NCBI RefSeq assembly: GCF_019890615.1
Contig: NZ_JAINVZ010000036.1
Coordinates: forward strand, 1-46,907
DNA from: Streptantibioticus parmotrematis
GTDB taxonomy: Bacteria > Actinomycetota > Actinomycetes > Streptomycetales > Streptomycetaceae
Direction: 5' to 3'
Length of the DNA stretch: 46,907 bases
Positions within the stretch are counted from its first letter, which is position 1; the number at the start of each line of letters is the position of its first letter. Below the pieces are notes generated by a model. That model was not told the origin of the DNA. It ran no database searches and saw only the letters and a list, made by a program, of their open reading frames with translations. The position numbers were made by a program, and so were the translations under genes. Of this stretch, positions 4,834 to 33,418 are shown one piece after another.

Positions 4834-5022
4834 CGGTGTATCGGGGCCGGTTCGTGGCCGAAACACCCGCGTCCGGTGTGGTGCGCGGGGGGCCACCGCG
4901 CCGACACTTGGCGTACATCGTCTGTCACGTCCCGCGTTCCCCTGACACCACAGCGCAATATCGAACCGATACGGTGGCGTAACGGTGGCTCGAACAGCCA
5001 GGTGAGAAGGAAGGCTTCGACC

Positions 5023-6063
5023 TTGGGCAACGTCGTGCTCGTCACGGGAGTGGCTCGGCGGCTGAGCGGCCGGTTCATCCGGAGCGTCCAGCGCGAGCCT
5101 GGCGTGGACCGGGTGATCGGGGTGGACTCCGTGCCGCCGGAACATCCCATCGGCGACGCGGAGTTCGTACGGGCCGACATCCGGCAGCCGATGATCGCCA
5201 AGGTGCTCGCCGAGCACGCGGTCGACACCGTCGTCCACCTGGACGTGACCGGCATGCCGCTCGGCCGCTCCAGGGGCGGGCGGGCGCTGGTCAAGGAGAC
5301 CAACGTCATCGGCACCATGCAGCTGCTCGGCGCCTGCCAGAAGGCGCCGAGCGTGCGGCGGCTGGTGGTGAAGTCGACCACCTCGGTCTACGGGTCCGCC
5401 CCGCGCGACCCGGCGGTCTTCCGGGAGACCACCCAGCCCAAGTCGCTGCCCGGCGGCGGCTTCGCCAAGGACGCCGTCGAGGTCGAGGGGTACGTGCGCG
5501 GGTTCGCCCGGCGGCGGCCCGACGTGGCGGTGGCGGTGCTGCGGTTCGCCAACATCCTGGGGCCGAGCGCCGACTCGCCGCTGGCGGAGTACTTCTCGCT
5601 GCCCGTGCTGCCGACCGTCCTCGGCTACGACCCGCGGTTGCAGTTCGTCCACGAGGACGACGTGCTCGACGTGCTGCGGGTCGCCTCCCGCGAGGCGGAG
5701 CGCGGCACCCTCAACAGCGGCACGTTCAACGTCGCGGGCGACGGTGTGCTGTTGCTGTCGCAGACCGCGCGGCGGCTGGGCAAGCCGACCGTGCCGGTGC
5801 TGCTGCCCGCGGTGCGCTGGGTGGGCGCCGCGCTGCGCGGGGTCGGGGTGACCGACTTCTCGCGCGAGCAGATCAGGCTGCTGACGCACGGGCGGGTGGT
5901 GGACACCACGCAGATGCGTGAGACGCTCGGATTCACCCCGCGGTACACCACCGCGGGCACGTTCGAGGACTTCGCGGCGTGCCGGGGCCCCGGGCTCCTG
6001 CCGCCCGACCGGCTGGCCCGGACCGTCGACCGGATCGCCGCGGCGCTGCCGCACGAGGCATGA
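5023..6063 (+). CDS. NAD-dependent epimerase/dehydratase (extended SDR family)
   Basis: A 346-residue Rossmann-fold protein of the GalE-like extended SDR family. The N-terminal nucleotide motif is degenerate (VVLVTGVARRLSGRF rather than TGxxGxxG), followed by the acidic strand end VDRVIGVDSVP. A Ser/Thr-Tyr region, KSTTSVYGSAP near residue 120, precedes KDAVEVEGYVRGFARRR, where the usual YxxxK tyrosine is replaced by FAKDAVEVEG. The catalytic dyad therefore appears altered and a true epimerase reaction is uncertain. The TTG at 5023 is chosen (GAGAAGGAAGG upstream; conserved GNVVLVTGVA start). It overlaps the possible ATG of the acyltransferase gene, suggesting coupling. Confidence 0.8.
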   Translation: MGNVVLVTGVARRLSGRFIRSVQREPGVDRVIGVDSVPPEHPIGDAEFVRADIRQPMIAKVLAEHAVDTVVHLDVTGMPLGRSRGGRALVKETNVIGTMQLLGACQKAPSVRRLVVKSTTSVYGSAPRDPAVFRETTQPKSLPGGGFAKDAVEVEGYVRGFARRRPDVAVAVLRFANILGPSADSPLAEYFSLPVLPTVLGYDPRLQFVHEDDVLDVLRVASREAERGTLNSGTFNVAGDGVLLLSQTARRLGKPTVPVLLPAVRWVGAALRGVGVTDFSREQIRLLTHGRVVDTTQMRETLGFTPRYTTAGTFEDFAACRGPGLLPPDRLARTVDRIAAALPHEA

Positions 6064-8964: not shown

Positions 8965-9789
8965 TCAGCGGGCGTCTTCCGGCAGCAGGCGGGCCAGGGT
9001 GCGGACGGCGCGGTACTGGAGGGTCTTGATCGCGCCCTCGTTCTTGCCCATGATCCGCGCGGTCTCGGCGACCGACAGACCTTGCAGGAAGCGCAGGGTC
9101 ACGCACTCCTGCTGCTGCGGGTTGAGCTTCTTGACGGCCTGGAGCAGGCTCTCGTTGGACAGGTGCTCCAGCACCGAGTCCTCCGGGCTGCGCTCGACCT
9201 CGTTGGCGTCGAGCATCTCGCCGGTGGTCACTTCCAGCCGGAACCTGCTCGACTTGAAGTGGTCCGCGACCAGGTTGCGCGCGATCGTGACCAGCCAGGC
9301 GCCGAAGTCCCGCCCCTGCCAGGTGAACGTGCCGATCCTGCGCAGTGCCCGCAGGAACGTCTCGCTGGTGAGGTCCTCGGCCGTGGCCTTACCGCCGACC
9401 CGGTAGTAGATGTACCGGTAGACGGTGTCGTTGTAGTGGTCGTAGAGGCGGCCGAACGCCTCCGTCTCGCCGGCCTGGGCGCGTTCGACCAGCTCCATCA
9501 TCCGCAGGCTGTCGCTGTCGGCGGGCGGACGCCGCGAGGAGGCGCCGGCGCCGGGGGAGCGGGTCCCGGGGGCGCGGGTGCCGGTGCGCTGCGCCGGGCC
9601 GCCGTGGCGGGAGGCGCGAGGGGCTGGTCTGCCGACGGCGGAGGTGCCGCCGGCGGCCATGGCGAAGGCGGTTGCGGGGACGGCGTACGCGGGGACTGCG
9701 TACACGGGGAGGACCTGGCGCAGGCGGTCGGCAACCTGTGCCCGCAGTGCGGTCAGGCCCGAGGCGTCAACCCCGACGAGTGGGTACAC
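8965..9789 (-). CDS. bldN: Developmental ECF sigma factor BldN (AdsA) with N-terminal pro-region
   Basis: A 274-residue ECF sigma factor required for aerial hyphae; known targets are bldM, the chaplins, the rodlins and rsbN. Residues 1-90 are the poorly conserved Ala/Pro/Gly-rich pro-sequence (MYPLVGVDASGLTALRAQVA), removed by proteolysis in S. coelicolor. Region 2 spans about 97-170, with TVYRYIYYRVGGKATAEDLT and FTWQGRDFGAWLVTIARNLV. Region 4 (about 205-270) contains LNPQQQECVTLRFLQGLSV and the HTH ending AIKTLQYRAVRTL. The GTG at 9789 matches the known family start; GGGAG is four bases upstream. It forms the regulatory pair with rsbN downstream. Confidence 0.96.
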   Translation of the reverse strand: MYPLVGVDASGLTALRAQVADRLRQVLPVYAVPAYAVPATAFAMAAGGTSAVGRPAPRASRHGGPAQRTGTRAPGTRSPGAGASSRRPPADSDSLRMMELVERAQAGETEAFGRLYDHYNDTVYRYIYYRVGGKATAEDLTSETFLRALRRIGTFTWQGRDFGAWLVTIARNLVADHFKSSRFRLEVTTGEMLDANEVERSPEDSVLEHLSNESLLQAVKKLNPQQQECVTLRFLQGLSVAETARIMGKNEGAIKTLQYRAVRTLARLLPEDAR

Positions 9790-10148
9790 GGGACTCCCAG
9801 ATGCAGGACTTCCATCACGATCAGTACGGAACCGTTCACCCGCCGTAGGGACGCGTGGGTACCGGTGTGCGTCTGAGGAGAATAACGCTTCGTACAGACG
9901 ACGCTACACCGAGTTGCCGAATTAGCCGGATGCGCTCGTTCCGTATCGCATTGACGACCGATCAAGTACGTGGTCGACGGCGGAAGTTGACCGTTTGGGC
10001 GCGTGGAATGTCCGGAACCAGGGCGTGTTGTGCCGATGTGGTCGCCCGGGGAGTGGCGCGGGCCGCGCCGGGGTACGGGACGGGGAATGCGCGCGCGGGC
10101 AGTGTGGACGCGGCCGTTCGCACCGCGCGTGGGCGGGCGTCGAACCGG
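9790..10148 (-). other. 359-base bldN upstream region, no gene
   Basis: A long non-coding leader between the HAD hydrolase and bldN. Known bldN promoters are BldD-controlled, but I could not find a convincing BldD box or a spaced -35/-10 pair by eye. No ORF here looks like a gene. Confidence 0.6.
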
Positions 10149-11096
10149 CTACCGCCTGCGGCGCTGTATGGCTGCGGCGGCCACCGCGCCGCCCGCCACC
10201 GCGCCCACGCCGGCCGCCGCCGGGAGGCCGATGCGGGCCGCCTTGCGGCCGGTGCGGTAGTCCCGCAGCCGCCAGTCGTGTTCACGGGCGTGCTTGCGCA
10301 ACGCGCTGTCAGGATTGATCGCGTACGGATGACCGACCAGCGACAGCATCGGGATGTCGTTGGCGGAGTCGCTGTAGGCGGCGCAGCGGGCCAGGTCGAG
10401 GCCGCGCGCGGCGGCCAGCGCCTTGACCGCCTCGGCCTTGGCGGGCCCGTGCAGCGGTTCGCCGACCAGGCGGCCGGTGTAGACGCCGCCGACCGACTCG
10501 GCGACGGTGCCCAGCGCGCCGGTCAGGCCGAGGCGGCGGGCGATGATGGTGGCGGTCTCGACCGGGGCGGCGGTCACCAGCCACACCGGCTGGCCCGCGT
10601 CCAGGTGGGCCTGGGCGAGCGCGCGGGTGCCGGGCCAGATCTTGCCCGCCATGTACTCGTCGTAGACCTCCTCGCCGATGGCCATCAGTTCCTCGACGCG
10701 GTGGCCCTTGACGATGGACAGCGCGCTGTTGCGCACGTCCTCCATGTGTCCCGGGTCCTCGGTGCCGGCCAACCGGAACCAGGTCTGCTGCCAGGCGAAG
10801 CGCAGCAGGTCGCGCTTGTGGAAGAACTTGCGCTTGTACAGGCCGCGGCCGAAGTGGAAGATGGCCGCGCCCTGCATCACGGTGTTGTCGAGGTCGAAGA
10901 ACGCGGCGGCCCTGGGGTCCCCGGCGACGGGGAAGCGGGGCTCCCGCTCCTCCTCCGCCTCGCGCGCGTCGGCGGCCTCGGCGGGCGCCGCCTCCTCGCG
11001 CACCGCGAGAGCGGCCTCGGCGGCGGCCTCCCCGGCCAGCACGCTGCGCGGACTCGCGGAACGGCGCCGCGCGGTGAGCCATCCAAGAGCGGGCAT
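10149..11096 (-). CDS. HAD-superfamily subfamily IB hydrolase (SerB/CicA-like)
   Basis: A 315-residue HAD-IB phosphatase. A low-complexity Ala/Glu-rich lead (about 1-60) precedes the nucleophile motif [12 protein letters not shown] near residue 65. Motif II is WLVTAAP, motif III the lysine in [11 protein letters not shown], and motif [14 protein letters not shown]. The short C-terminal hydrophobic stretch ([21 protein letters not shown]) followed by QRRRR resembles a membrane anchor. The family removes phosphate from small molecules or lipids; the substrate is unknown. The ATG at 11096 begins the conserved [21 protein letters not shown] segment. It lies upstream of bldN on the same strand, as in other Streptomyces. 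Confidence 0.88.
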
Positions 11097-25346: not shown

Positions 25347-25547
25347 TCAGGCCTCAAGAATGATCTGTTGGTCGGCGGCGAACGTGGTGAACGCGGCCCA
25401 GGCGGTCGGGGTGAACGCGAGGGTGGGACCCTGCGGGTCCTTGGAGTCCCGGACGTGGACGAGGGTGGGGCAGGCGGCGACCTCGACGCACTGCCCGCCT
25501 TCTTCGCTGCTGTAGCTGGACGTGAACCATCGCGGTGCGCCGTTCAT
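25347..25547 (-). CDS. DUF397 domain protein (second tandem copy)
   Basis: A 66-residue DUF397 protein: APRWFTSSYSSEEGGQCVEV, AACPTLVHVRDSKDPQGPTL and FTPTAWAAFTTFAAD contain every family hallmark. DUF397 proteins are encoded next to WhiJ-like XRE regulators in actinomycetes, where the pair acts in development and antibiotic control. In at least one case they behave as a toxin-antitoxin-like pair (Scr1/Scr2). GAGGAG is six bases before the ATG. It lies 21 bases after the first DUF397 gene, in one operon with the XRE gene. Confidence 0.93.
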   Translation of the reverse strand: MNGAPRWFTSSYSSEEGGQCVEVAACPTLVHVRDSKDPQGPTLAFTPTAWAAFTTFAADQQIILEA

Positions 25548-25568
25548 CGCTCTCCTCGGGGTCGGCGA

Positions 25569-25766
25569 TTACGCCTCAGGAAAGGGGTGTTGCGCGGCGA
25601 AGCTGGTGAACGCGGTCCAGGCGGTCGGGGTGAACGTCAGCGCGGGCCCTTCGGGGTCCTTGGAGTCGCGGACGTGGACGACGCTCGGGCAGGCGGCGAC
25701 CTCGACGCAGGCGCCGCCCTGTTCGCTGCTGTAGCTGGACTTGAACCATTGCTGTGCGTCGTTCAT
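25569..25766 (-). CDS. DUF397 domain protein (first tandem copy)
   Basis: A 65-residue DUF397 protein (MNDAQQWFKSSYSSEQGGAC, VEVAACPSVVHVRDSKDPEG, LTFTPTAWTAFTSFA). Its ATG at 25766 overlaps the stop of the XRE regulator (ATGA), so the two are translationally coupled. It is about three-quarters identical in protein sequence to its downstream neighbour, and both share the ribosome-site/start segment AGGAGAGCGATGAACG. It is likely a recent local duplication. Confidence 0.93.
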   Translation of the reverse strand: MNDAQQWFKSSYSSEQGGACVEVAACPSVVHVRDSKDPEGPALTFTPTAWTAFTSFAAQHPFPEA

Positions 25767-26590
25767 CGCTCTCCTAGCAGGCTGTCCAACAGGCCCTTGG
25801 TCTCCTCGGGATTGCAGGCCTGGGATCGCAGCATCGCATACTTCCGCGCCAGGATGCTTACCTCGTCCGGGTCGGAGATCAGGTGGCTGCCGCGCTGCGT
25901 CTCCGTGTACGCGAGCTGTACGTGTTCGGGGGTTTCCAGCAGCACGAACGAACCCGACAACCCGGCGTGTGTGGTTCGACCTTCGGGCATCACCTGGATC
26001 GTGACACCGGGCAGATCTGCGCACGCGCGGAGGTGCGCCAGTTGCTGGCGGTAGACCTCGCCGCCGCCAAGTCGGTCCTTGAGCGTGGCCATGGAGAAGA
26101 TGAAGCTGGCGGACACCGGTACCTCCCTGTGCAGAACCTCCTGACGCTCCATGCGTGCGGCAACGCGTTCTTCGATCTCCGCATCGCTGAGGATCGGGAT
26201 CTCGTTGCGGAACACGGCGCGCGCGTAGTTCTCGGTTTGGAGCAGCCCGGGCAGCACCTGGTTCTCGAACCATGACATCGCGACCGCCGTCCGCTCGTAG
26301 AGCATGAACTCCTCAGCCCAGACGGGATATCGATCCACCTCCGGCATGTTGTCCGTGGCGACCTCGAACACGCCCTTGGTGTTGAGGACGCGATCGAGTT
26401 CGCGGGCCAGATCGGGCAGCAGCGGGCGCCGCCCCTGCTCGATGGACGACATCAACTCCCCGCTGATCGTCACGCGGTTCGCGAGTTCGACCTGTGTGAG
26501 CCCGTTGAGGCCCCGGAACAGCGCGACCTGCGCGCCCACGAGCCCCCACGCCGTCGTCGGCTTCTTCCTGCGCTTTCGTTGTGGCTGCAT
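25763..26590 (-). CDS. WhiJ-like XRE regulator with DUF5753
   Basis: A 275-residue protein. A basic lead (QPQRKRRKKPTTAW) is followed by an XRE helix-turn-helix at about 18-75 (FRGLNGLTQVELANRVTISG, MSSIEQGRRPLLPDLARELD). The DUF5753 domain fills about 90-265: WFENQVLPGLLQTENYARAV, the helix ERVAARMERQEVL, and HLRACADLPGVTIQVMPEG. Such regulators bind DNA near their own operon and act with DUF397 partners. It is coupled to the first DUF397 gene. ACCCGTACG repeats in the 173-base upstream gap (26591-26763) are candidate operators. Confidence 0.92.
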   Translation of the reverse strand: MQPQRKRRKKPTTAWGLVGAQVALFRGLNGLTQVELANRVTISGELMSSIEQGRRPLLPDLARELDRVLNTKGVFEVATDNMPEVDRYPVWAEEFMLYERTAVAMSWFENQVLPGLLQTENYARAVFRNEIPILSDAEIEERVAARMERQEVLHREVPVSASFIFSMATLKDRLGGGEVYRQQLAHLRACADLPGVTIQVMPEGRTTHAGLSGSFVLLETPEHVQLAYTETQRGSHLISDPDEVSILARKYAMLRSQACNPEETKGLLDSLLGER

Positions 26591-26633
26591 GCCCCATCAA
26601 CTCCCCACCCGTTTCCCAGCGCACCGTAACCGC

Positions 26634-26690
26634 ACCCGTACGTTGCGTTCGTACGGGTTCCGCAAAACGCGACCCGTACGTGTGATCGGG
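26634..26690 (-). promoter_or_regulatory. ACCCGTACG operator cluster upstream of the WhiJ-like gene
   Basis: ACCCGTACG occurs at 26634-26642, inverted at 26650-26658 (a 9-bp perfect inverted repeat with a 7-base spacer), and again at 26672-26680. The third copy lies inside a 21-bp block (26670-26690) that is repeated exactly at 30329-30349. The positions 45-100 bases before the regulator start suggest self-regulation. Confidence 0.6.
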
Positions 26691-26763
26691 CGCCGAGCCG
26701 CCCAGGGAGTTCGCGCCCCCGGGCGCCGTTTCCACCGCGCACGGGTGGAGCCGCCGGCGCGGC

Positions 26764-27708
26764 CTAAGCGGTCAAGTCTGGGCCGAAGTACCCCGGCGTG
26801 CGGAACAGGCCCGTGAAGGTACCGGGGCCGTGCCGTTCGTCCAACCACGTCCCCAGCGCCGCAGCGTCTCCGCTGATGACGGCAGCGAGGAGGCGCTTGT
26901 GGCAGTCCTCCTCTTCCCCAGGAGCGAACTCCGCGAGGAAGCGCGCGTACCGGTGGTTGACGCCCTTCTCGTAGTCGGCGAGGGCCGCCGCGTACCGTGT
27001 TCGCTCCGTGTTTCCCGGCACGGCCACCACGCGCCGGGCGTCCTCTTCAGTGAGCCTTCCCGTCACGTCACGGAAGACGAGTGCGTCGAGGACGTCCGAC
27101 GGCTCCGCCACGTCGAAGCGTTCCGCCGTCTGCCGGGTGATGGAGCGCGCCTCTTTGTCACACACGCCTTCCATGACGATTCCGAGATTGCGGGTGTGGA
27201 GGCTTCCGTGTTGGTCGGCCGCCGAGTAGGTCTGTCCGCTTGTGCGGCGGTAGTTGATCCCGTATTGGGTTCGGACGGGTACGCCCGCCACTTCCACGTA
27301 CCGCCGACGGGACCCGTAGTGGAGGCAGTCATGGGCGTACGCGCGGAGCAGGTCGAGGAGTGCCAGCGCGGGGCGTTCGGGACTCCGCCGTTCCATGGGC
27401 CCGTACATGGTGATGACAGCCACCATGTGCAGATGCCGGTATCCCTGGCCCGGGTGGTGGAACCCGCCGAACGCGTCGGCACGGGAGGAGTCGTAGCCGA
27501 CCAGCACGCGGTCGAGCGGCAGCATCCTCGCCAGCCCGTAGGCCGCGTACCGGCGTCCTGCGATTTCGGCACCGGTGCGGAAGGGAGTGGTGTCGATTCC
27601 GTCGGCCGCCCACCGGCTGAGCAGCTCCGGGAGAGGCCGGAACACATGGGCGGGGTGTTTCCTCGTGAGCGAGGAGGCGTCTGCGCGCATGGCCGCGAGT
27701 GCGGCCAC
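26764..27708 (-). CDS. Unrecognised 314-residue protein with an HDxxH motif
   Basis: I do not recognise this family. The protein is soluble, with no signal peptide or membrane segment. Notable are ALLDLLRAYAHDCLHYGSRR (HDxxH near residue 155), GYRHLHMVAVITMYGPM before it, and GIVMEGVCDKEARSITRQT about 50 residues later. The HDxxH-plus-distal-Glu layout could bind a metal as in zincins with Asp in place of Glu, or as in HD hydrolases; both are guesses. The start is uncertain: GTG 27708 (GGGG upstream) or ATG 27690. It follows the Nudix gene by about 40 bases on the same strand, so the two are probably co-transcribed. Confidence 0.7.
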   Translation of the reverse strand: MAALAAMRADASSLTRKHPAHVFRPLPELLSRWAADGIDTTPFRTGAEIAGRRYAAYGLARMLPLDRVLVGYDSSRADAFGGFHHPGQGYRHLHMVAVITMYGPMERRSPERPALALLDLLRAYAHDCLHYGSRRRYVEVAGVPVRTQYGINYRRTSGQTYSAADQHGSLHTRNLGIVMEGVCDKEARSITRQTAERFDVAEPSDVLDALVFRDVTGRLTEEDARRVVAVPGNTERTRYAAALADYEKGVNHRYARFLAEFAPGEEEDCHKRLLAAVISGDAAALGTWLDERHGPGTFTGLFRTPGYFGPDLTA

Positions 27709-27749
27709 GGCCCCAGCGCCGATAACGGATTCGTTGGGGCCGAGTTCCG

Positions 27750-28205
27750 CTAAGCAGGCGTGCCCGACTTGATGAGCTGGACATGTGAATCCTGCATCCC
27801 GTCCGGGAGCCCGTCCGGACTGAACCATTTCGCCTCCAGGATCTCGAAGCCGTCGAGCTTGAGAGTTCCACCCACGTGCAATGCCTCGTAGGCGATTTCC
27901 ATGCGGAGCTTGTAGCCGCTGGTCACCTGGACCAGGCGGCCCGGAAGGACTTCGAGACCGGTTTCTTCGCGGACCTCCCGAACGACGGTGTTCGGGAATT
28001 CCTCGCCCTTGACCGCGTAGCCGGTCGGGAGCCCCCACGGCCGCTCTGCGGGCCACATGCGGTGCTTGAGCAGGAGGATTTGGCCTTGTTCGTTTCGCAC
28101 CACACCCGTCACGCCGACCATGAATTTGGCGTGCGCCAACCACAGGATGCGCCATTGCAGAGGGCCGCGGATGAGTTTCCATACGCCGGCAACGATGCGT
28201 TTCAT
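27750..28205 (-). CDS. Nudix hydrolase
   Basis: A 151-residue Nudix protein. The box GX5EX7REVXEEXG is complete: GYAVKGEEFPNTVVREVREE then TGLEV (about residues 62-86), with the metal-binding Glu residues present. It would cleave a nucleoside diphosphate linked to another group; the substrate is not predictable. The N-terminal MKRIVAGVWKLIRGPLQWRI is basic and amphipathic. GGAAAGG is six bases before the ATG. It lies between the CxxC mini-protein gene and the unrecognised HDxxH gene, all on the minus strand. Confidence 0.88.
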   Translation of the reverse strand: MKRIVAGVWKLIRGPLQWRILWLAHAKFMVGVTGVVRNEQGQILLLKHRMWPAERPWGLPTGYAVKGEEFPNTVVREVREETGLEVLPGRLVQVTSGYKLRMEIAYEALHVGGTLKLDGFEILEAKWFSPDGLPDGMQDSHVQLIKSGTPA

Positions 28206-28300
28206 GCCCAACCTTTCCACAGGCAAGCCGGAGGCCTGCGTCAGCTGACTCAACCCGGGCCGCGGGGAGCAGGTCACGCCTGCGGGCGGGACAGGCACGC

Positions 28301-28501
28301 TCACCGGTGGTCCGCCGAGAGGTGACGGTGCAACCTCACGTCGCAGTCACTGCGCTTGCTCGCGTCACCGTTCACCCGCGCCCGGCCCCGCTCCATGGCG
28401 ATCTTTTCGCAGTATGCGCAACCCGGTACCGGCCTCGGCCCGTCATCCGGCCCCAGAGGCAAGGCCGTTGGATCGCTCGGATTGGTTCGCGGCTCGCGCA
28501 T
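28301..28501 (-). CDS. 66-residue CxxC mini-protein
   Basis: A short protein with a proline-rich start and the segment CAYCEKIAMERGRARVNGDA followed by SKRSDCDVRLHRHLSADH. The CxxC pair plus a later Cys and several His residues could bind zinc. Similar short CxxC proteins accompany WhiJ-like clusters in Streptomyces, but I know of no assigned function. GAAGGGG is five bases upstream of the ATG. Confidence 0.7.
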   Translation of the reverse strand: MREPRTNPSDPTALPLGPDDGPRPVPGCAYCEKIAMERGRARVNGDASKRSDCDVRLHRHLSADHR

Positions 28502-28589
28502 GAAGGCCCCTTCGCGTCGTCTGGATCAGGACCACGCTAGGGACGACCGGGTCTCAACTCACAGCGGATTGCACACGATTGCGGGTGAG

Positions 28590-29438
28590 TCAGACAAGCG
28601 AATCCCGTGCCTTGGCCAGCAGCACACGTGCCCTGCCCCCGTATACCGCCATCCCTGCCAGCGTGGCGAAAGTGTCGGCGTATGCCTTGATCTCGCTGGG
28701 TTCCGTGATCGTGAGATAGCCGGACACCAGCTCGACGTTCACCTGTGCGGAGTCGAAGATCCAGAAGCCTTCCACCGGCATGCGCACCCGGCCGAGACGA
28801 ACGGGGACCACCCCTACGCTGACATTCGGCAGACCCGCGACCGCCAGCAGGTGGTCGAGCTGTTCCGCTTGAGTGTCCGCGTTGCCCAGGCCGTTGCCCA
28901 GCACTGATTCCTCCACAAGGAACGCGAAGCGCCGCCGTCCTTCACGCAACACGCTCTGACGTTCCATCCGGGCGGCCACCGCATCGGCGACGTCATCAAT
29001 GGCGACCCGCCTGCGCTGGACAGCGCGCAACACGTCCTCCGTGTAGCCGAAGGTCTGAAGGAGCCCAGGCAAGAGCCCCGGCGAGTACGCACGGAACCAC
29101 CGGGTTCGCTCGTACAGCGGCAAGCGGGCTTCCTGTGGCCGACGAAGACCCGCGCGCTCCATGCGACGCCAGGACACCCACATCTCGTCCACGGCCCGCA
29201 GAGAGGCAATCAAGTCGTCCGTCTGGTCCTGTGCCCCGCACGCTTGGCACCACGCCCGGATGTCGTCCGCGCTGGGCTGTGTCTTTCCCGTCGAGATCCG
29301 GGACACCTTGGACGGATGCCAGCCGCACAGTGCGGCGACTTGCCGCCCTTCCAGCCCCGAGTCCGTGACCAACTCCCTCAGCCGACCGGCCAGGGCTTGC
29401 CGGGCTCGCTGGACGCTGGATGACGCTGATCGGGGCAT
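28590..29438 (-). CDS. Second WhiJ-like XRE regulator with DUF5753
   Basis: A 282-residue regulator. The XRE domain is at about 12-70 (LRELVTDSGLEGRQVAALCG, WHPSKVSRISTGKTQPSADD). DUF5753 covers about 95-280 (FRAYSPGLLPGLLQTFGYTE, AARMERQSVLREGRRRFAFL, HLLAVAGLPNVSVGVVPVRL). It differs clearly from the first copy, so it is an ancient paralogue. Its start is only six bases after the DUF6879 stop, so the two are one transcript. A DUF6879 partner in place of DUF397 is a recurring variant of this cassette. Confidence 0.92.
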   Translation of the reverse strand: MPRSASSSVQRARQALAGRLRELVTDSGLEGRQVAALCGWHPSKVSRISTGKTQPSADDIRAWCQACGAQDQTDDLIASLRAVDEMWVSWRRMERAGLRRPQEARLPLYERTRWFRAYSPGLLPGLLQTFGYTEDVLRAVQRRRVAIDDVADAVAARMERQSVLREGRRRFAFLVEESVLGNGLGNADTQAEQLDHLLAVAGLPNVSVGVVPVRLGRVRMPVEGFWIFDSAQVNVELVSGYLTITEPSEIKAYADTFATLAGMAVYGGRARVLLAKARDSLV

Positions 29439-29444
29439 GGCGGA

Positions 29445-29960
29445 TCAGACCGGCCTGTACTCCTCATGCGGCACAGCGCGCTTCCACACCAACTCGAACG
29501 CGGACGAGACGAGTTGGACGACTTCCGGCTCTGTTCTCCACTCTCGGTCGACCACCTCCCCGACTCCGGAGAAATGCGTGAACAGGACTGCTTCGCCGTC
29601 GAACATCCACAGGTCGGTGCCGGGCAGCGGAATGTCGGCGGCCTGGCGTCGCGGCAGCCAGCGCACCAGTTCACCCGCCACCACGTTCGGGAACGTCACG
29701 TCGTACTCGTACCGGATGTAGTCCGTCACCGGCTCCGACACGATCCGCGCCCGCCGCATGGCCACACCGCGCGCCCTCGTCTCCACCACCACGTCGAGGA
29801 ACGGCCGCCACCACGTCGAGCGCTCGGCCTCACGGTCCAGGCGCTTGCCGTTCTGCCACGCGAGGAATTCGGGGTCGCCGGGCTGGTAGGTGTCGCGCAT
29901 CTCCAGGTGCACGGCGGAGTGCCGGGCTTTCGCCAGGCTCTCGAGCACGGGGTTCGTCAT
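29445..29960 (-). CDS. DUF6879 family protein
   Basis: A 171-residue soluble protein of the DUF6879 family: HLEMRDTYQPGDPEFLAWQN, RGVAMRRARIVSEPVTDYIR and YEYDVTFPNVVAGELVRWLP are typical. These proteins usually lie beside XRE/DUF5753 regulators and probably act with them; no biochemical role is established. It is followed by the second XRE gene six bases downstream and is preceded by the 80-residue gene four bases upstream. Confidence 0.87.
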   Translation of the reverse strand: MTNPVLESLAKARHSAVHLEMRDTYQPGDPEFLAWQNGKRLDREAERSTWWRPFLDVVVETRARGVAMRRARIVSEPVTDYIRYEYDVTFPNVVAGELVRWLPRRQAADIPLPGTDLWMFDGEAVLFTHFSGVGEVVDREWRTEPEVVQLVSSAFELVWKRAVPHEEYRPV

Positions 29961-29964
29961 CGTC

Positions 29965-30207
29965 CTACTCGCTGTCGGGAGCCGGCAGGTACCGCCGCAT
30001 GACCTGGGGCAGCCTGATGATCACCTCGTGATCCGGAACCTCCGTGCTGTGACCGGGGATCGACCCGATCTCCTGGCATGCCTTCACCTCTTCTTCCGTG
30101 GCGCGGTACGACTGGATCAGCAGATCCCCACTGTCCTCGTCCAGCCAGATCGTCGGCGAGTCCGTGTCAGGGGTGTTCGGAATGATGCCCAGGAAACGTA
30201 AGCGCAT
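29965..30207 (-). CDS. 80-residue conserved hypothetical protein with a TTA third codon
   Basis: A short acidic protein (MRLRFLGIIPNTPDTDSPTI, then WLDEDSGDLLIQSYRATEEE). No known domain is recognised, but it is a frequent first gene in DUF6879/XRE cassettes. ATG 30207 has GGGAG five bases upstream. The third codon is TTA (30201-30199), which would tie translation of the operon's first gene to bldA tRNA. The upstream gap 30208-30367 contains a second copy of the 21-bp ACCCGTACG block. Confidence 0.77.
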   Translation of the reverse strand: MRLRFLGIIPNTPDTDSPTIWLDEDSGDLLIQSYRATEEEVKACQEIGSIPGHSTEVPDHEVIIRLPQVMRRYLPAPDSE

Positions 30208-30328
30208 GGCCACTCCCAGCGTCGATCCGGTTGCAGCGGATTGCTCGAGCGTCACCCGGTATGCCTCCACGGTCAAGAGGACCTTGTTGTCGGGGCGTTG
30301 ACCCAAAGCCGACAGGCCCGCCCCCGCC

Positions 30329-30349
30329 CGACCCGTACGTGTGATCGGG
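30329..30349 (-). promoter_or_regulatory. Second exact copy of the 21-bp ACCCGTACG block
   Basis: These 21 bases are identical and in the same orientation to 26670-26690. The block starts CGACCCGTACG and ends GTGATCGGG. It lies about 122 bases upstream of the 80-residue gene start. A shared operator or promoter for the two cassette halves is the simplest reading; a recombination boundary is possible. Confidence 0.6.
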
Positions 30350-30367: not shown

Positions 30368-31096
30368 TCACGATGCGAGTTCCAGCAACACGGCGGCCAG
30401 TTCCGTGGGCATGGTGATCATGCAGTCGTGTCCGGTCGGCAGCTCTCGTGTGCGGGCGGGGGAGCCGTTGGGCTGGGTGGCGGGGACGGGGCGTCGCACG
30501 ATGCCTTCCGGCTTTGTGCCGACGCAGTGGATGTGGGTGCGGGGGATCGCGTTCGCGGCGGGGTTGTCCAGCCGGGCCGGTTGCTGGAGGCAGCGCACCG
30601 GGTGGTCGGAGAGCATCGAGCGGAGCCACGCGGCGTCCGCCGGGTCGGTGACCCCGAACAGGCCGAACGGCGGCGGCAGTTCCGGCAGGGGCGGGATGCG
30701 CCAGGGCGTGTCGGTGCGGGCGGCCAGGTCGATCAGGTTCTGGGTCACGGGCTGCACGTCGACCGCGGTCTCGCCGTGCTCCGGGACCATCGCGTCGAGG
30801 TACACGAGGTGGGCGACGCGCTCCGGTATCTCGTTGGCCACGGACGAGACGACCAGTCCGGCGTAGCTGTGGCCCACGAGCACGACGTCGTTCAGGTCCT
30901 TGTCGTGGACCAGTTCCAGGATGTCCTCGACGTGCGTGTCGAGCCCTACCTCCGGGCCGAGCAGGTGTGCCTTGTCGCCGTAACCCGTCAGCGAGGGAGT
31001 GAGCACGCGGTGCCCTGCCGACGTGAGCAGCGGGGACACCCGCTCCCAGCACTGGCCGCTGTGCCAGGCGCCGTGGACCAGGATGAACGTTGACAT
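30368..31096 (-). CDS. Alpha/beta-hydrolase (esterase type)
   Basis: A 242-residue alpha/beta-hydrolase. The N-terminal strand STFILVHGAWHSGQCWERV carries the oxyanion HGAW. The nucleophile elbow is VLVGHSYAGLV (Ser77), the acid is probably in the FGVTDPADAAW region, and the catalytic His lies in LPTGHDCMITMP near the C-terminus. It resembles plant methylesterase/hydroxynitrile-lyase-type enzymes that act on small esters. AAGGG is seven bases before the ATG. It is divergent from the HxlR regulator, which likely controls it. Confidence 0.88.
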   Translation of the reverse strand: MSTFILVHGAWHSGQCWERVSPLLTSAGHRVLTPSLTGYGDKAHLLGPEVGLDTHVEDILELVHDKDLNDVVLVGHSYAGLVVSSVANEIPERVAHLVYLDAMVPEHGETAVDVQPVTQNLIDLAARTDTPWRIPPLPELPPPFGLFGVTDPADAAWLRSMLSDHPVRCLQQPARLDNPAANAIPRTHIHCVGTKPEGIVRRPVPATQPNGSPARTRELPTGHDCMITMPTELAAVLLELAS

Positions 31097-31133
31097 GAGG
31101 GAACCCTTCGGGAGGTCGGAGCACGGCAACGCG

Positions 31134-31172
31134 CCGGTTCCTGTTCGTGCCTCGGTACTCTTCAGGAACCGG
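31134..31172. promoter_or_regulatory. Inverted repeat between hydrolase and HxlR genes
   Basis: CCGGTTCCTG (31134-31143) and CAGGAACCGG (31163-31172) are perfect 10-bp arms around 19 bases, in the 149-base divergent promoter region. It is a good candidate operator for the HxlR protein. Confidence 0.6.
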
Positions 31173-31245
31173 AATCATCGTGCTGCGCCTGACGCACTCC
31201 GATCAATAAGGCACATTTCGGTGCCCCGGTTCTCTGGAGGTAACC

Positions 31246-31632
31246 ATGAGCGACACAGCGGACGGCGGGCCGGCCTCCGAGGAGCCGTGCCGGGCGCGCG
31301 AGGTACTGGGCATGGTCGGCGACAAGTGGTCGCTGCTGATCGTGCGCCACCTCAGCGAGGGGCCGCGTCGCTTCACCGAGCTCAAGCGCAGCGTCGAGGG
31401 GATCAGTCAGCGCATGCTCACCGTCACCCTGCGCGGCCTCGAGCGGGACGGCATCCTCACGCGGACCGTCCGCAACGTCATGCCGCCGCACGTCAGTTAC
31501 GAGCTCACGCCGATGGGCAGGTCTCTGCGCGAAGCCACCGCGCCCCTGCTGGAGTGGAGCACCGCGCACCTGGCGCGCATCGGCGCCGCTCGCGCCGCCT
31601 ACGACGCCCGCCCGGACGCCCCGCCGGCCTGA
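31246..31632 (+). CDS. HxlR-family transcriptional regulator
   Basis: A 128-residue winged-helix regulator: CRAREVLGMVGDKWSLLIVR, then HLSEGPRRFTELKRSVEGIS, QRMLTVTLRGLERDGILTRT and YELTPMGRSL cover the full HxlR domain. A Cys before the first helix (EEPCRAREVLG) is at the place where redox- or aldehyde-sensing HxlR proteins have theirs. GGAGG sits eight bases upstream of the ATG. It is divergent from the hydrolase, with the inverted repeat between them. Confidence 0.92.
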   Translation: MSDTADGGPASEEPCRAREVLGMVGDKWSLLIVRHLSEGPRRFTELKRSVEGISQRMLTVTLRGLERDGILTRTVRNVMPPHVSYELTPMGRSLREATAPLLEWSTAHLARIGAARAAYDARPDAPPA

Positions 31633-31656
31633 CCCTCGCCGGGCTTCCTGGCTCCC

Positions 31657-31714
31657 GCGGCCCGCCCGTGCTGCGGCCCGCCCGTGCTGCGGCCCGCCCG
31701 TGCTGCGGCCCGCC
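31657..31714. repeat. 16-bp tandem repeat, 3.6 copies
   Basis: GCGGCCCGCCCGTGCT occurs three times exactly at 31657-31704 and a partial fourth copy runs to 31714. It lies between the convergent HxlR and ArsR-SRPBCC genes and can be prone to slippage. Confidence 0.9.
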
Positions 31715-31752
31715 TCCGCGAAGGTGGCGCCGGGGCGCGCCCGCGAGAGCCG

Positions 31753-32580
31753 CTACCCGTTCTTCCCCATGCGGGCCGCGCGCTCGGCGGCGTGGAACTC
31801 CCAGGGCGGCGTGGGCAGTACGTCGCCCGTCTCCAGGAACGTCTTGAGGTTGGCGAGCACCGTGGGCCAGCCCTGCCCGATCGCCTCCCGGTCGGCTGCC
31901 GAACGGAAGCGGGTCTGCGTGAGCGTGAGCTTCACGATGTCGCGGTACGGCTCGATCTCGAACGTCACCACGCTCTGCTCGGCCGCGGGGGCGTCGGCGT
32001 CGTGGGGAGCGCCGAAACCGAACGACAGGCGGCGCGGTCGGTCCACCTCCGTGACCGTCCCGGCCGCGTCGGCGATGCCGGAACCGTCGGCCCGCACGTG
32101 TTCGACCCGGCTGCCGACGCTCCAGTCCGAGACCTGTGCGTGACCCCAGAACCTCGCGGTGATGTCCGGGTCGGTGAGCGCTCGCCACACCTGCTCCGCC
32201 GTGGCGTGGATGTAGGTCGTGTAGACGTAGTCGGGGATCGTCCCTGCGTGATCGGCCTCGGACATCGTGTTCTCCTCCGCGCGATTCCTGATCGTTTCGA
32301 GTGCCGCGAGACGCGGCTCCTCGAACTTCCGGATCCAGCGGGTCTGGATCCGGTGAATGGGCACCGGGTTCAGGTAGTGGAGCTTGCGCCGGCCGTCCCG
32401 CACCGAGGTCACGAGATTGGCGGCCTCCAGGATTTCGAGGTGCTGGCTGACCGACTGGCGGCGCATGTCGAGGCCCTCGCAGAGTTCGCCGAGGGTCAGC
32501 CCCGCGCGCTCGCGCAGCATGTCCAGCAGGCGACGCCGCCCGGGGTCGGCCAGCGCCTTGAACACCGTGTCCGGTTCCAT
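31753..32580 (-). CDS. ArsR regulator fused to an SRPBCC (AHSA1-type) domain
   Basis: A 275-residue fusion. Residues 1-100 are an ArsR winged helix (MEPDTVFKALADPGRRRLLD, MRRQSVSQHLEILEAANLVT). Residues about 110-260 are an SRPBCC/AHSA1 domain (YVYTTYIHATAEQVWRALTD, ARFWGHAQVSDWSVGSRVEH, GWPTVLANLKTFLETGD), a hydrophobic ligand pocket. These are usually two overlapping genes; here MSEADH at the junction, where a second gene would start, is read through in the same frame. The SRPBCC part may sense a ligand. A palindrome lies directly upstream of the ATG. Confidence 0.9.
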   Translation of the reverse strand: MEPDTVFKALADPGRRRLLDMLRERAGLTLGELCEGLDMRRQSVSQHLEILEAANLVTSVRDGRRKLHYLNPVPIHRIQTRWIRKFEEPRLAALETIRNRAEENTMSEADHAGTIPDYVYTTYIHATAEQVWRALTDPDITARFWGHAQVSDWSVGSRVEHVRADGSGIADAAGTVTEVDRPRRLSFGFGAPHDADAPAAEQSVVTFEIEPYRDIVKLTLTQTRFRSAADREAIGQGWPTVLANLKTFLETGDVLPTPPWEFHAAERAARMGKNG

Positions 32581-32589
32581 GGCCTCATT

Positions 32590-32609
32590 ATGCAGGCATT
32601 CACCTGCAT
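32590..32609 (-). promoter_or_regulatory. Palindromic operator in front of the ArsR-SRPBCC gene
   Basis: ATGCAGG (32590-32596) and CCTGCAT (32603-32609) are perfect 7-bp arms around six bases. The site starts nine bases upstream of the start codon, where an autorepressor would block transcription or early elongation. Confidence 0.6.
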
Positions 32610-32695
32610 GTGCCAGCGGGGCTTCGGCGGTCGTCAGCGGCCCGGCCGCGTCGTGCGACCCGGAGGGGCCGACCTCGCGGGCTGACTGGGTGCGG

Positions 32696-33418
32696 CTACA
32701 GGTTGTTGACGAGCAGATTGACCGCGAACGCGAAGCGGTCCGGGCCCGTGCCGGAGATCAGGTCGGCGGCGTGGCGCTGGGTGTGCGGGAACTGCTCGAC
32801 CGGCAGCGCGGTGAAGCGCTCCAGCAACTCGTCCTGGCCGAGCACCCACTCCTGGTCCGGGCGCTTGCGCCGCTGCTGGACCACCGACTGCTCCAACGCG
32901 TAGGCGCTGACGTAGAGGGAGAGCGCGTCGCGGGCCCAGGCGGCCGTCCTCGGGGCGACGCCGCCCGCGAGCAGGATCGCCAGGATTCCTTCGCCGACCC
33001 GCAGCGTGTCCAGGTTGGTCGGCACCACGGCCAGCGCGGCGCGTGAGACCCCGGGGTACTTCAGGTACAGGTCGCGGATCTGCGTGCAGACCCCGAGCAG
33101 CTGCTCGCGCCAGGCGGCCGGGTCCGGCTCGGGGAGCGCGACCTCCGCGTAGAGCCTGCCGATCAGCAGCTCGTCGATGTCGTCCTTGTTGACGATGTGC
33201 GCGTACAGCGACGACGGGCCGGTGCCGAGCACGGCGGCGACACGGCGGATGGTCAGCGCGTCGTACCCCTGCGTGGCGACGACTTCCAGGGCGGCGTCGG
33301 TGATCCGCTCGACGGTGATCGGCTTCTTGCGCGGCACCGGTGCGGCGGCGGCCTCCGCGGCGGGCTGGGCGTGGCGGGCGGCGCGGCGCTTGCGGGGATC
33401 GTCGGGCATGCCGGCCAC
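32696..33418 (-). CDS. TetR-family regulator with a TetR_C-type ligand domain
   Basis: A 240-residue repressor. The HTH is at about 32-80 (ITVERITDAALEVVATQGYD, LTIRRVAAVLGTGPSSLYAH). The C-terminal domain (about 95-235) starts LLIGRLYAEVALPEPDPAAW and resembles TetR_C/TetR_C_1 domains that bind tetracycline-like or aromatic ligands. The GTG at 33418 or the ATG at 33409 may be the start; neither has a clear ribosome site, so the transcript may be leaderless. It is divergent from an FAD monooxygenase, with two palindromes between them. Confidence 0.9.
   Translation of the reverse strand: MAGMPDDPRKRRAARHAQPAAEAAAAPVPRKKPITVERITDAALEVVATQGYDALTIRRVAAVLGTGPSSLYAHIVNKDDIDELLIGRLYAEVALPEPDPAAWREQLLGVCTQIRDLYLKYPGVSRAALAVVPTNLDTLRVGEGILAILLAGGVAPRTAAWARDALSLYVSAYALEQSVVQQRRKRPDQEWVLGQDELLERFTALPVEQFPHTQRHAADLISGTGPDRFAFAVNLLVNNL

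What the first reader, a model, noticed from the sequence alone, without database searches (positions are those of the whole stretch)
25347..30349. Nine-gene minus-strand cassette built around two WhiJ-like regulators
Nine adjacent genes share one strand: an 80-residue protein, DUF6879, XRE/DUF5753, CxxC mini-protein, Nudix, an unknown HDxxH protein, XRE/DUF5753 and two DUF397. XRE plus DUF397 pairs are known regulators, but the link to a Nudix hydrolase, a possible metalloenzyme and a CxxC protein suggests two regulatory pairs that flank effector enzymes, perhaps a toxin-antitoxin-like or signalling system.
Basis: partly seen in the sequence, partly recalled or inferred. Interest (0 to 1): 0.7.

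Follow-up and report, generated by a model that had tools for sequence, protein, structure and literature searches.

The report
Mobile enzyme cassette beside resident regulator
What looked like one nine-gene regulatory cassette is a resident three-gene regulator locus with a separate six-gene unit inserted beside it; that unit carries its own probable DNA switch and a Nudix enzyme paired with a protein of an unclassified family.

Summary
All nine genes are present, but they form two units. (1) XRE2-DUF397-DUF397 (25347-26590) is a resident locus. (2) The other six genes (A, DUF6879, XRE1, CxxC, Nudix, F) lie in a 3,659-bp insertion bounded by perfect 21-bp direct repeats; the one sister genome held has a gapless empty site with a single copy.

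The insertion is itself modular: DUF6879-XRE1 and Nudix-F each co-vary across relatives (r = 0.93, 0.95), but much less with each other (0.50-0.59). A tandem GCAATC-N4-GCAAYC occurs only twice in the 7.4-Mb genome, before A and before CxxC-Nudix-F, and among relatives it tracks XRE1: a likely XRE1 operator.

F has no family in the libraries searched, carries an invariant HDxxH...ExxxD motif, and follows the Nudix gene in 30 of 30 substantial copies; small fragments were left out. Some copies lie near mobile-element genes, one beside a pSAM2-type RepSA. Best reading: Nudix-F cargo of actinomycete integrative elements, captured by a WhiJ-type switch, perhaps for immunity against incoming elements or phage. 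The regulation and the enzyme function are inferred, not shown.

The parts
25347..25547 (-). I: DUF397 protein, 66 aa (resident locus)
   Evidence: Pfam DUF397 8.6e-24
25569..25766 (-). H: DUF397 protein, 65 aa (resident locus)
   Evidence: Pfam DUF397 8.6e-25; tandem copy of I, 86% over 182 nt
25763..26590 (-). G (XRE2): HTH_31 + DUF5753 regulator, 275 aa (resident locus)
   Evidence: Pfam; 94% identical in the sister genome, 67% in three more relatives that lack F
26634..26680 (.). three CGTACGGGT motifs (26634-26642, 26650-26658 inverted, 26672-26680), putative XRE2 sites
   Evidence: 4 in the window, 0.47 expected; three clustered CGTACGGG sites before XRE2 in L121-L124, none near it in L125 (positions converted by me)
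26670..26690 (.). 21-bp direct repeat, inner copy
26691..30349 (.). 3,659-bp insertion holding A-F and one repeat copy
   Evidence: gapless 238-bp alignment (92%) of the joined flanks to the sister genome
26764..27690 (-). F: protein of unclassified family, 308 aa, HDxxH and ExxxD motifs
   Evidence: no family; alignment A1; model pLDDT 87
27750..28205 (-). E: Nudix hydrolase, 151 aa from the corrected start
   Evidence: Pfam NUDIX 2.3e-16; start
28301..28501 (-). D: CxxC mini-protein, 66 aa, optional member
   Evidence: homologue in 5 of 24 loci, window included
28567..28582 (-). site 2: GCAATCGTGTGCAATC, putative XRE1 operator before D-E-F
28590..29438 (-). C (XRE1): HTH_31 + DUF5753 regulator, 282 aa
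   Evidence: Pfam
29445..29960 (-). B: DUF6879 protein, 171 aa, putative partner of XRE1
   Evidence: Pfam 4.6e-51; co-varies with C, r = 0.93
29965..30207 (-). A: 80-aa protein, no family
   Evidence: homologue in 8 of 24 loci
30229..30244 (-). site 1: GCAATCCGCTGCAACC, putative XRE1 operator before A-B-C
30329..30349 (.). 21-bp direct repeat, outer copy

Best explanation
The span is a resident WhiJ-type locus (XRE2-DUF397-DUF397) beside a horizontally acquired, precisely inserted six-gene unit A-F. Shown here: the insertion with its empty site; the modular make-up (B-C pair, E-F pair); and two GCAATC tandem sites that track XRE1. Inferred: XRE1 (C), tuned by its partner DUF6879 (B) as WhiJ is thought to be tuned by BldB/DUF397, binds these sites, represses its own A-B-C transcript from site 1 and switches D-E-F from site 2. 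[quoted passage not shown] E removes a nucleotide-type metabolite or signal, F acts on a partner substrate, and together they guard the cell against incoming elements or phage, in the manner reported for the Nudix protein Pif of pSAM2. My odds: composite structure 0.95, XRE1 operator 0.8, AICE link of E-F 0.7, immunity role 0.35.
For: Empty site: 238 bp, 92%, no gaps; 21-bp repeats. XRE2 locus kept in the sister and three syntenic relatives without F. Co-variation on the same 14 loci: B-C 0.93, E-F 0.95, cross pairs 0.50-0.59 (Spearman 0.77, 0.75 and 0.41-0.44). E directly before F in 24 of 24 loci and 6 of 6 in another family. GCAATCNNNNGCAAYC: two matches in the genome, both here; exact repeat after C in 6 of 7 loci with C at 66% or more, 0 of 16 others (Fisher 7e-5). 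Mobile-element context: DUF3987 in L044, GntR-UTRA in L050, weak resolvase and integrase pieces in L011 and L018, RepSA 7.8e-73 in L145. A second copy (L013) also lies between direct repeats, 161 bp at 87% (0 of 45 control places at E 1e-10 or less). WhiJ9 binds direct repeats beside its gene, activates iosA and appears to repress itself (PMC10294661, passages, discussion). Pif and AICE Nudix genes: PMC3218068 (passages), PMC9513070 (passages).
Against: No binding, transcript or enzyme data. No recombinase in the insertion, so how it moved is unknown; of 23 other loci only L013 shows clear flanking repeats, L018 and L022 possible ones. Relatives of E are common without F (62 of 394 genomes have E at 1e-30, 19 any F match, own genome included in both), so E may be a general enzyme. 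Pif itself could not be compared. L016 has C at 66% but only degenerate sites. The resolvase and integrase matches are below the Pfam cut-offs. The zincin-like hint rests on a motif and on Z of 4.7 at most.
Confidence: 0.5

Rival explanations
1. Toxin-antitoxin-like pair: F is a harmful enzyme and E (Nudix) is its antidote, by removing the product or binding F, kept silent by XRE1.
For: F was damaged or absent beside an intact E in 5 cases: L018 (16-residue deletion), L023 (change of frame), L057 (truncated), L092 (absent) and plasmid L134 (short F). The reverse was not seen. No substantial F copy lacks E.
Against: Five cases are few and relatedness was not corrected. Both proteins are larger than usual toxins. 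E occurs widely on its own. XRE-DUF397 pairs, once proposed as toxin-antitoxin, acted as regulators in S. coelicolor (PMC10364602, passages).
Confidence: 0.2
2. E and F tailor a small molecule or peptide (specialised metabolism), with XRE1 as pathway regulator.
For: XRE-DUF5753/DUF397 genes are noted beside some peptide gene clusters (PMC13097080, passages). One HExxH oxygenase domain is among the weak structural rows.
Against: I saw no biosynthetic partner genes shared between the E-F loci; only E, F and regulators recur. Not searched systematically.
Confidence: 0.2
3. A-F is ancestral at this place and the sister genome lost it by recombination between the 21-bp repeats, which would be true regulator sites.
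For: The repeat contains a CGTACGGGT motif of the putative XRE2 site set.
Against: The sister and three syntenic relatives all keep XRE2 and are not among the genomes with an F match, so repeated loss would be needed.
Confidence: 0.07
4. One reading: one nine-gene system with two regulatory pairs flanking effectors.
For: Shared strand; DUF397 genes within 5 kb of E-F in 10 of 24 loci, about 1 expected.
Against: Empty site between the two parts; different site sets for the two regulators; varying order and strand of DUF397 genes elsewhere.
Confidence: 0.05

Closest known systems
WhiJ-BldB (XRE-DUF397) loci such as iosA-whiJ9-bldB9 (PMC10294661)
   Same: G-H-I has this make-up; for A-F, an XRE-DUF5753 regulator lies beside an effector, with direct repeats about 10 bp apart before its own transcript and before the effector genes
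   Different: In A-F the partner is DUF6879 instead of DUF397, the repeat is GCAATC rather than the WhiJ9 repeat, and the effector is Nudix-F rather than IosA
nud-mdp-xre cluster of AICEs (four Frankia AICEs, Sco5349, pMEA100, pSE211; PMC3218068, passage)
   Same: Nudix gene, XRE gene and a putative metal-dependent enzyme together on integrative elements
   Different: F has no HD-domain match; no AICE backbone gene in the window insertion; sequences not compared
Pif, the Nudix conjugal-immunity factor of pSAM2 (PMC3218068 and PMC9513070, passages)
   Same: Nudix protein on integrative elements; in L145 E-F lies near a pSAM2-type RepSA
   Different: E has an obligate partner F; Pif sequence not held; no immunity data
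Gluzincin metallopeptidases (M1, M2, M49; names recalled)
   Same: HxxxH plus ExxxD 50 residues on; weak structural rows
   Different: HDxxH instead of HExxH; Z at most 4.7; no sequence match

Membership tests
XRE-DUF397 (WhiJ-BldB) pair: genes G-H-I | XRE HTH with DUF5753 and adjacent DUF397 gene(s) | tested here: met
XRE-DUF397 (WhiJ-BldB) pair: genes G-H-I | binding to repeats near its own gene | not testable with these tools
   only motif conservation seen
XRE-DUF397 (WhiJ-BldB) pair: genes B-C | XRE HTH with DUF5753 | tested here: met
XRE-DUF397 (WhiJ-BldB) pair: genes B-C | DUF397 partner | tested here: not met
   partner is DUF6879; B-C works like such a pair at most
AICE (the window insertion) | integrase, replication initiator and transfer genes inside the element | tested here: not met
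   the insertion holds six genes, none of these
AICE (locus L145) | RepSA-type replication initiator near E-F | tested here: met
   PF20199 7.8e-73; integrase and transfer genes not tested
AICE nud-mdp-xre cluster | Nudix and XRE genes together | tested here: met
AICE nud-mdp-xre cluster | mdp with HD phosphohydrolase domain | tested here: not met
   no Pfam family at E up to 1 in 23 rows of F
Pif | sequence homology to Pif of pSAM2 | not tested
   record not held
Pif | conjugal immunity | not testable with these tools
   needs mating assays
Gluzincin peptidase (F) | HExxH | tested here: not met
   HDxxH in all 23 rows
Gluzincin peptidase (F) | ExxxD/E third-ligand motif (recalled) | tested here: met
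   E174 and D178 invariant
Gluzincin peptidase (F) | fold | tested here: inconclusive
   no significant Foldseek match; Z at most 4.7
Toxin-antitoxin pair (E-F) | F toxic alone and neutralised by E | not testable with these tools
   only the loss asymmetry

The most novel reading that the evidence does not exclude
E and F are an undescribed two-enzyme exclusion or defence system: a Nudix hydrolase plus a new, zincin-like enzyme family, spread on actinomycete integrative elements and run by exchangeable regulators (DUF6879-XRE with its own GCAATC operator in this unit, other XRE types elsewhere), which in this genome has become a compact 3.66-kb cassette bounded by 21-bp repeats.
Probability: 0.25. 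Interest if true: 0.75.

Novelty: new variant of a known kind. Interest (0 to 1): 0.45.

Why it matters
The work separates a resident developmental-type regulator from a mobile unit that looks like part of it, and gives the unit a testable regulatory code: one tandem repeat with two sites in the whole genome. It points to an unclassified protein family (F) with an invariant metal-site-like motif, tied to a Nudix gene in every substantial copy seen. How Nudix proteins give conjugal immunity was stated to be unknown in PMC3218068 (2011; passage); a Nudix enzyme with a constant partner is a concrete handle on that question. DUF6879, here linked to an XRE regulator by co-variation, had no paper in the held library.

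Tried and rejected
One nine-gene operon: rejected because of the empty site and because E-F occurs without C-type XRE genes.

Flanking repeats as a general rule: exact repeats of 12 bp or more within 1.5 kb at 13 of the 23 other loci, then gapped repeats within 2.5 kb at 23 of 23. Apart from the window, only L013 is clear (161 bp, 87%, enclosing the unit plus about 0.8 kb). L018 and L022 have 60 and 52 bp at 83-87%; L051, L010, L015 and L049 have weaker ones; the other 16 have none. Control: 0 of 45 places at E 1e-10 or less, 1 of 45 at 1e-5 or less. So most copies show no such boundary.

F as a known family: nothing in Pfam, NCBIfam, PADLOC or PHROGs, nothing convincing in PDB sequences (best single-sequence match E 0.013 to an unrelated-looking protein; best profile match 0.59), no Foldseek match better than E 1.0 in PDB or 2.1 among viral models. 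The second structural look covered only Foldseek's own 407 chains and its rows are mostly ACE and ACE2 entries, which are many in the PDB. The core of F folded alone gave a poor model (mean pLDDT 50.5) and was not searched.

Phage or plasmid carriage: F none in 50,697 phage records; two partial matches in plasmids, one beside an E homologue, the other (Embleya) not looked at.

Rows dropped before the 24-locus count: F fragments in G129, G095, G238, G072 and G371 and the second, 42-aa piece in G294. Of these G129 keeps an intact E beside it and G095 an inverted E fragment; the rest showed no E match, apart from G294, whose intact pair lies about 7 kb away. Partial copies kept: L019 (E and F truncated), L021 (F in pieces, E match starting at residue 15), L023 (split F). 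L014, L020, L022 and L023 were taken as the same records as G233, G113, G130 and G136 because contig lengths agree. Two of the 23 rows of alignment A1 (L033, L034) repeat L020 and L022 in this way. One search used 23 of the 24 (L019 left out) and listed repeats only from 5 kb before to 2.5 kb after E. My gene picker misses low-GC3 genes, so 'no XRE upstream' means no tblastn match to C.
Full report
Observation. A, D and F match nothing in Pfam, NCBIfam or PADLOC. I name the genes A to I in transcription order. The genome holds 46 DUF397 stretches and 4 DUF6879 stretches, 3 of these near full length.

Two units. The stated span ends on one copy of a perfect 21-bp direct repeat (30329-30349); the other copy lies before XRE2 (26670-26690). 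The only other genome held of the same genus, G001, has XRE2 at 94% protein identity and no F. The two window flanks joined at one repeat copy align to it over 238 bp without a gap at 92%. A-F is thus a precise 3,659-bp insertion with a 21-bp duplication. Three further relatives (G014, G026, G034) keep XRE2-DUF397 within the same surroundings, a LytR-CpsA-Psr-like gene on one side and an argS-like gene near the other (gene names by eye), and are not among the 19 of 394 family genomes, own included, with any match to F. Gain in the window lineage is simpler than repeated loss. No recombinase lies in the insertion, and how it moved is unknown. At one other locus, L013, the unit plus about 0.8 kb also lies between direct repeats (161 bp, 87%), the downstream copy falling in the end of another gene; L018 and L022 show shorter ones and most loci none.

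The insertion is modular. I collected F copies from named genomes (14 loci) and unnamed ones and, after removing four duplicate records and small fragments, compared 24 loci. The Nudix gene lies directly before F in 24 of 24 (both truncated in L019; F broken in L021 and L023). A second family of the same class gave 6 of 6. The regulator part is exchangeable: A, B and a C homologue of 48% or more in 8 of 24; diverged DUF6879 and XRE genes (29-34%) in 6; a lone diverged XRE in L019; no match to C in 9, of which L049 has an XRE gene of another type. In L017, a Nocardiopsis, E and F are 81% and 79% identical to the window but C only 30%. On the same 14 loci pairwise identities correlate at r = 0.93 for B-C and 0.95 for E-F, and 0.50-0.59 across the pairs (Spearman 0.77, 0.75 and 0.41-0.44). 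D is present in 5 of 24.

A regulatory code. Between C and D the relatives with C share a conserved block holding GCAATC-N4-GCAATC, two hexamers 10 bp apart. The window has it at 28567-28582, 7 bp after the C stop codon, and a near copy at 30229-30244, 21 bp before the A start codon. The pattern GCAATCNNNNGCAAYC has these two matches in the whole 7.4-Mb genome and no others; 0.01 were expected in the window. Among 23 loci examined the exact repeat follows C in 6 of 7 with C at 66% or more and is absent in 16 of 16 others (Fisher p = 7e-5, not corrected for relatedness). The others include loci whose E and F are just as similar (L011, L014, L017, L018, L046), so the repeat tracks C and not the enzymes. 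L016 has only a degenerate form, and L015 only a near copy before A. WhiJ9 of S. venezuelae binds direct repeats beside its gene, is needed to activate the neighbouring iosA and appears to repress itself (PMC10294661; passages, discussion section). I infer that C works in this way, with DUF6879 in the place of DUF397. XRE2 has a different site set: three CGTACGGGT motifs before its gene (4 in the window, 0.47 expected), with three clustered CGTACGGG sites before XRE2 in each of L121-L124 and none near it in L125 (positions converted by me). The duplication put one such motif about 120 bp before A, so cross-talk is possible but untested.

What E and F may do. F is 308 aa. All 23 aligned rows (21 distinct records) keep HDxxH (120-124) and, 50 residues on, ExxxD (174-178), close to the HExxH...ExxxD signature that I recall for gluzincins, with Asp for Glu. 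AlphaFold2 gave pLDDT 87 and pTM 0.88. Foldseek found nothing significant. The second look listed zinc peptidases of the M1, M2 and M49 types (family names recalled) and one HExxH oxygenase domain, with Z at most 4.7 and many rows of one protein; this is a lead only. E-F copies lie near mobile-element genes in some loci: DUF3987 (L044) and a GntR-UTRA regulator (L050) above the Pfam cut-offs, a resolvase piece (L011) and an integrase piece (L018) below them; in L145 E-F lies between an XRE-like gene (by eye) and RepSA, the pSAM2 replication initiator family (7.8e-73). AICEs often carry Nudix genes, the Nudix protein Pif of pSAM2 prevents redundant transfer, and some AICEs carry a nud-mdp-xre cluster (PMC3218068, passages; PMC9513070, passages; PMC11706625, passages). 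E-F is therefore most likely AICE-type cargo, and an exclusion or immunity role is my first choice, at about one in three. No member of F has an HD-domain match, so it is not shown to be mdp.

Against this, relatives of E occur without F: 62 of 394 genomes have E at 1e-30. In 20 F-less loci viewed the Nudix neighbours were varied, and only L102 had DUF6879 and XRE genes like B and C beside it (DUF397 genes lay in 6 of the 20). One close relative of E (83%, L092) has no F. The toxin-antitoxin idea keeps some support: F is damaged or absent while E is whole in L018, L023, L057, L092 and plasmid L134, and the reverse was not seen. Five cases are few.

DUF397 neighbours. Ten of 24 loci have a DUF397 gene within 5 kb of E-F (9 of 23 without the window), against 0.95 expected from 456 hits in 13 genomes of rounded size. 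Order, strand and distance vary, so I read this as shared islands or hot spots. The test assumes a uniform spread, which clustered DUF397 genes do not have.

Novelty. G-H-I is an ordinary XRE-DUF397 locus. A-F is a new combination of known kinds (AICE-type Nudix cargo, WhiJ-type switch) around a protein family without a description in the libraries searched. In the held papers DUF6879 had no hit, and the searches joining Nudix with WhiJ, XRE or AICE terms listed no paper whose title or shown abstract start describes this pair. I read passages of six papers and one discussion section, no whole paper.

Noticed in passing
30329-30349: The repeat duplication places one CGTACGGGT motif of the putative XRE2 site set about 120 bp before gene A, so XRE2 might influence the inserted unit.
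   Followed up: partly
26691-26763 and the same place in L010, L011, L012, L014, L018, L045, L046: A GC-rich hairpin-like sequence follows F in several relatives (a possible terminator); in the window it looks degenerate.
   Followed up: no
G000 contig C12, 314338-315293 and 435403-436160: Two tandem DUF397 arrays in the window's genome.
   Followed up: no
L110, 1087-1435 and 4660-5056: Two broken copies of the Nudix gene E, each a short way before a DUF397 gene, as if a segment had been duplicated.
   Followed up: no
window 30536-33393 against L121: The sister genome lacks most of this stretch (only 31515-31566 aligns), which includes most of the alpha/beta-hydrolase-like gene (gene name by eye).
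   Followed up: no
L013, about 4932-5089 and 9765-9925: A 161-bp direct repeat (87%) encloses the A-F unit plus about 0.8 kb; the downstream copy overlaps the end of a predicted gene at 9780-10928.
   Followed up: partly
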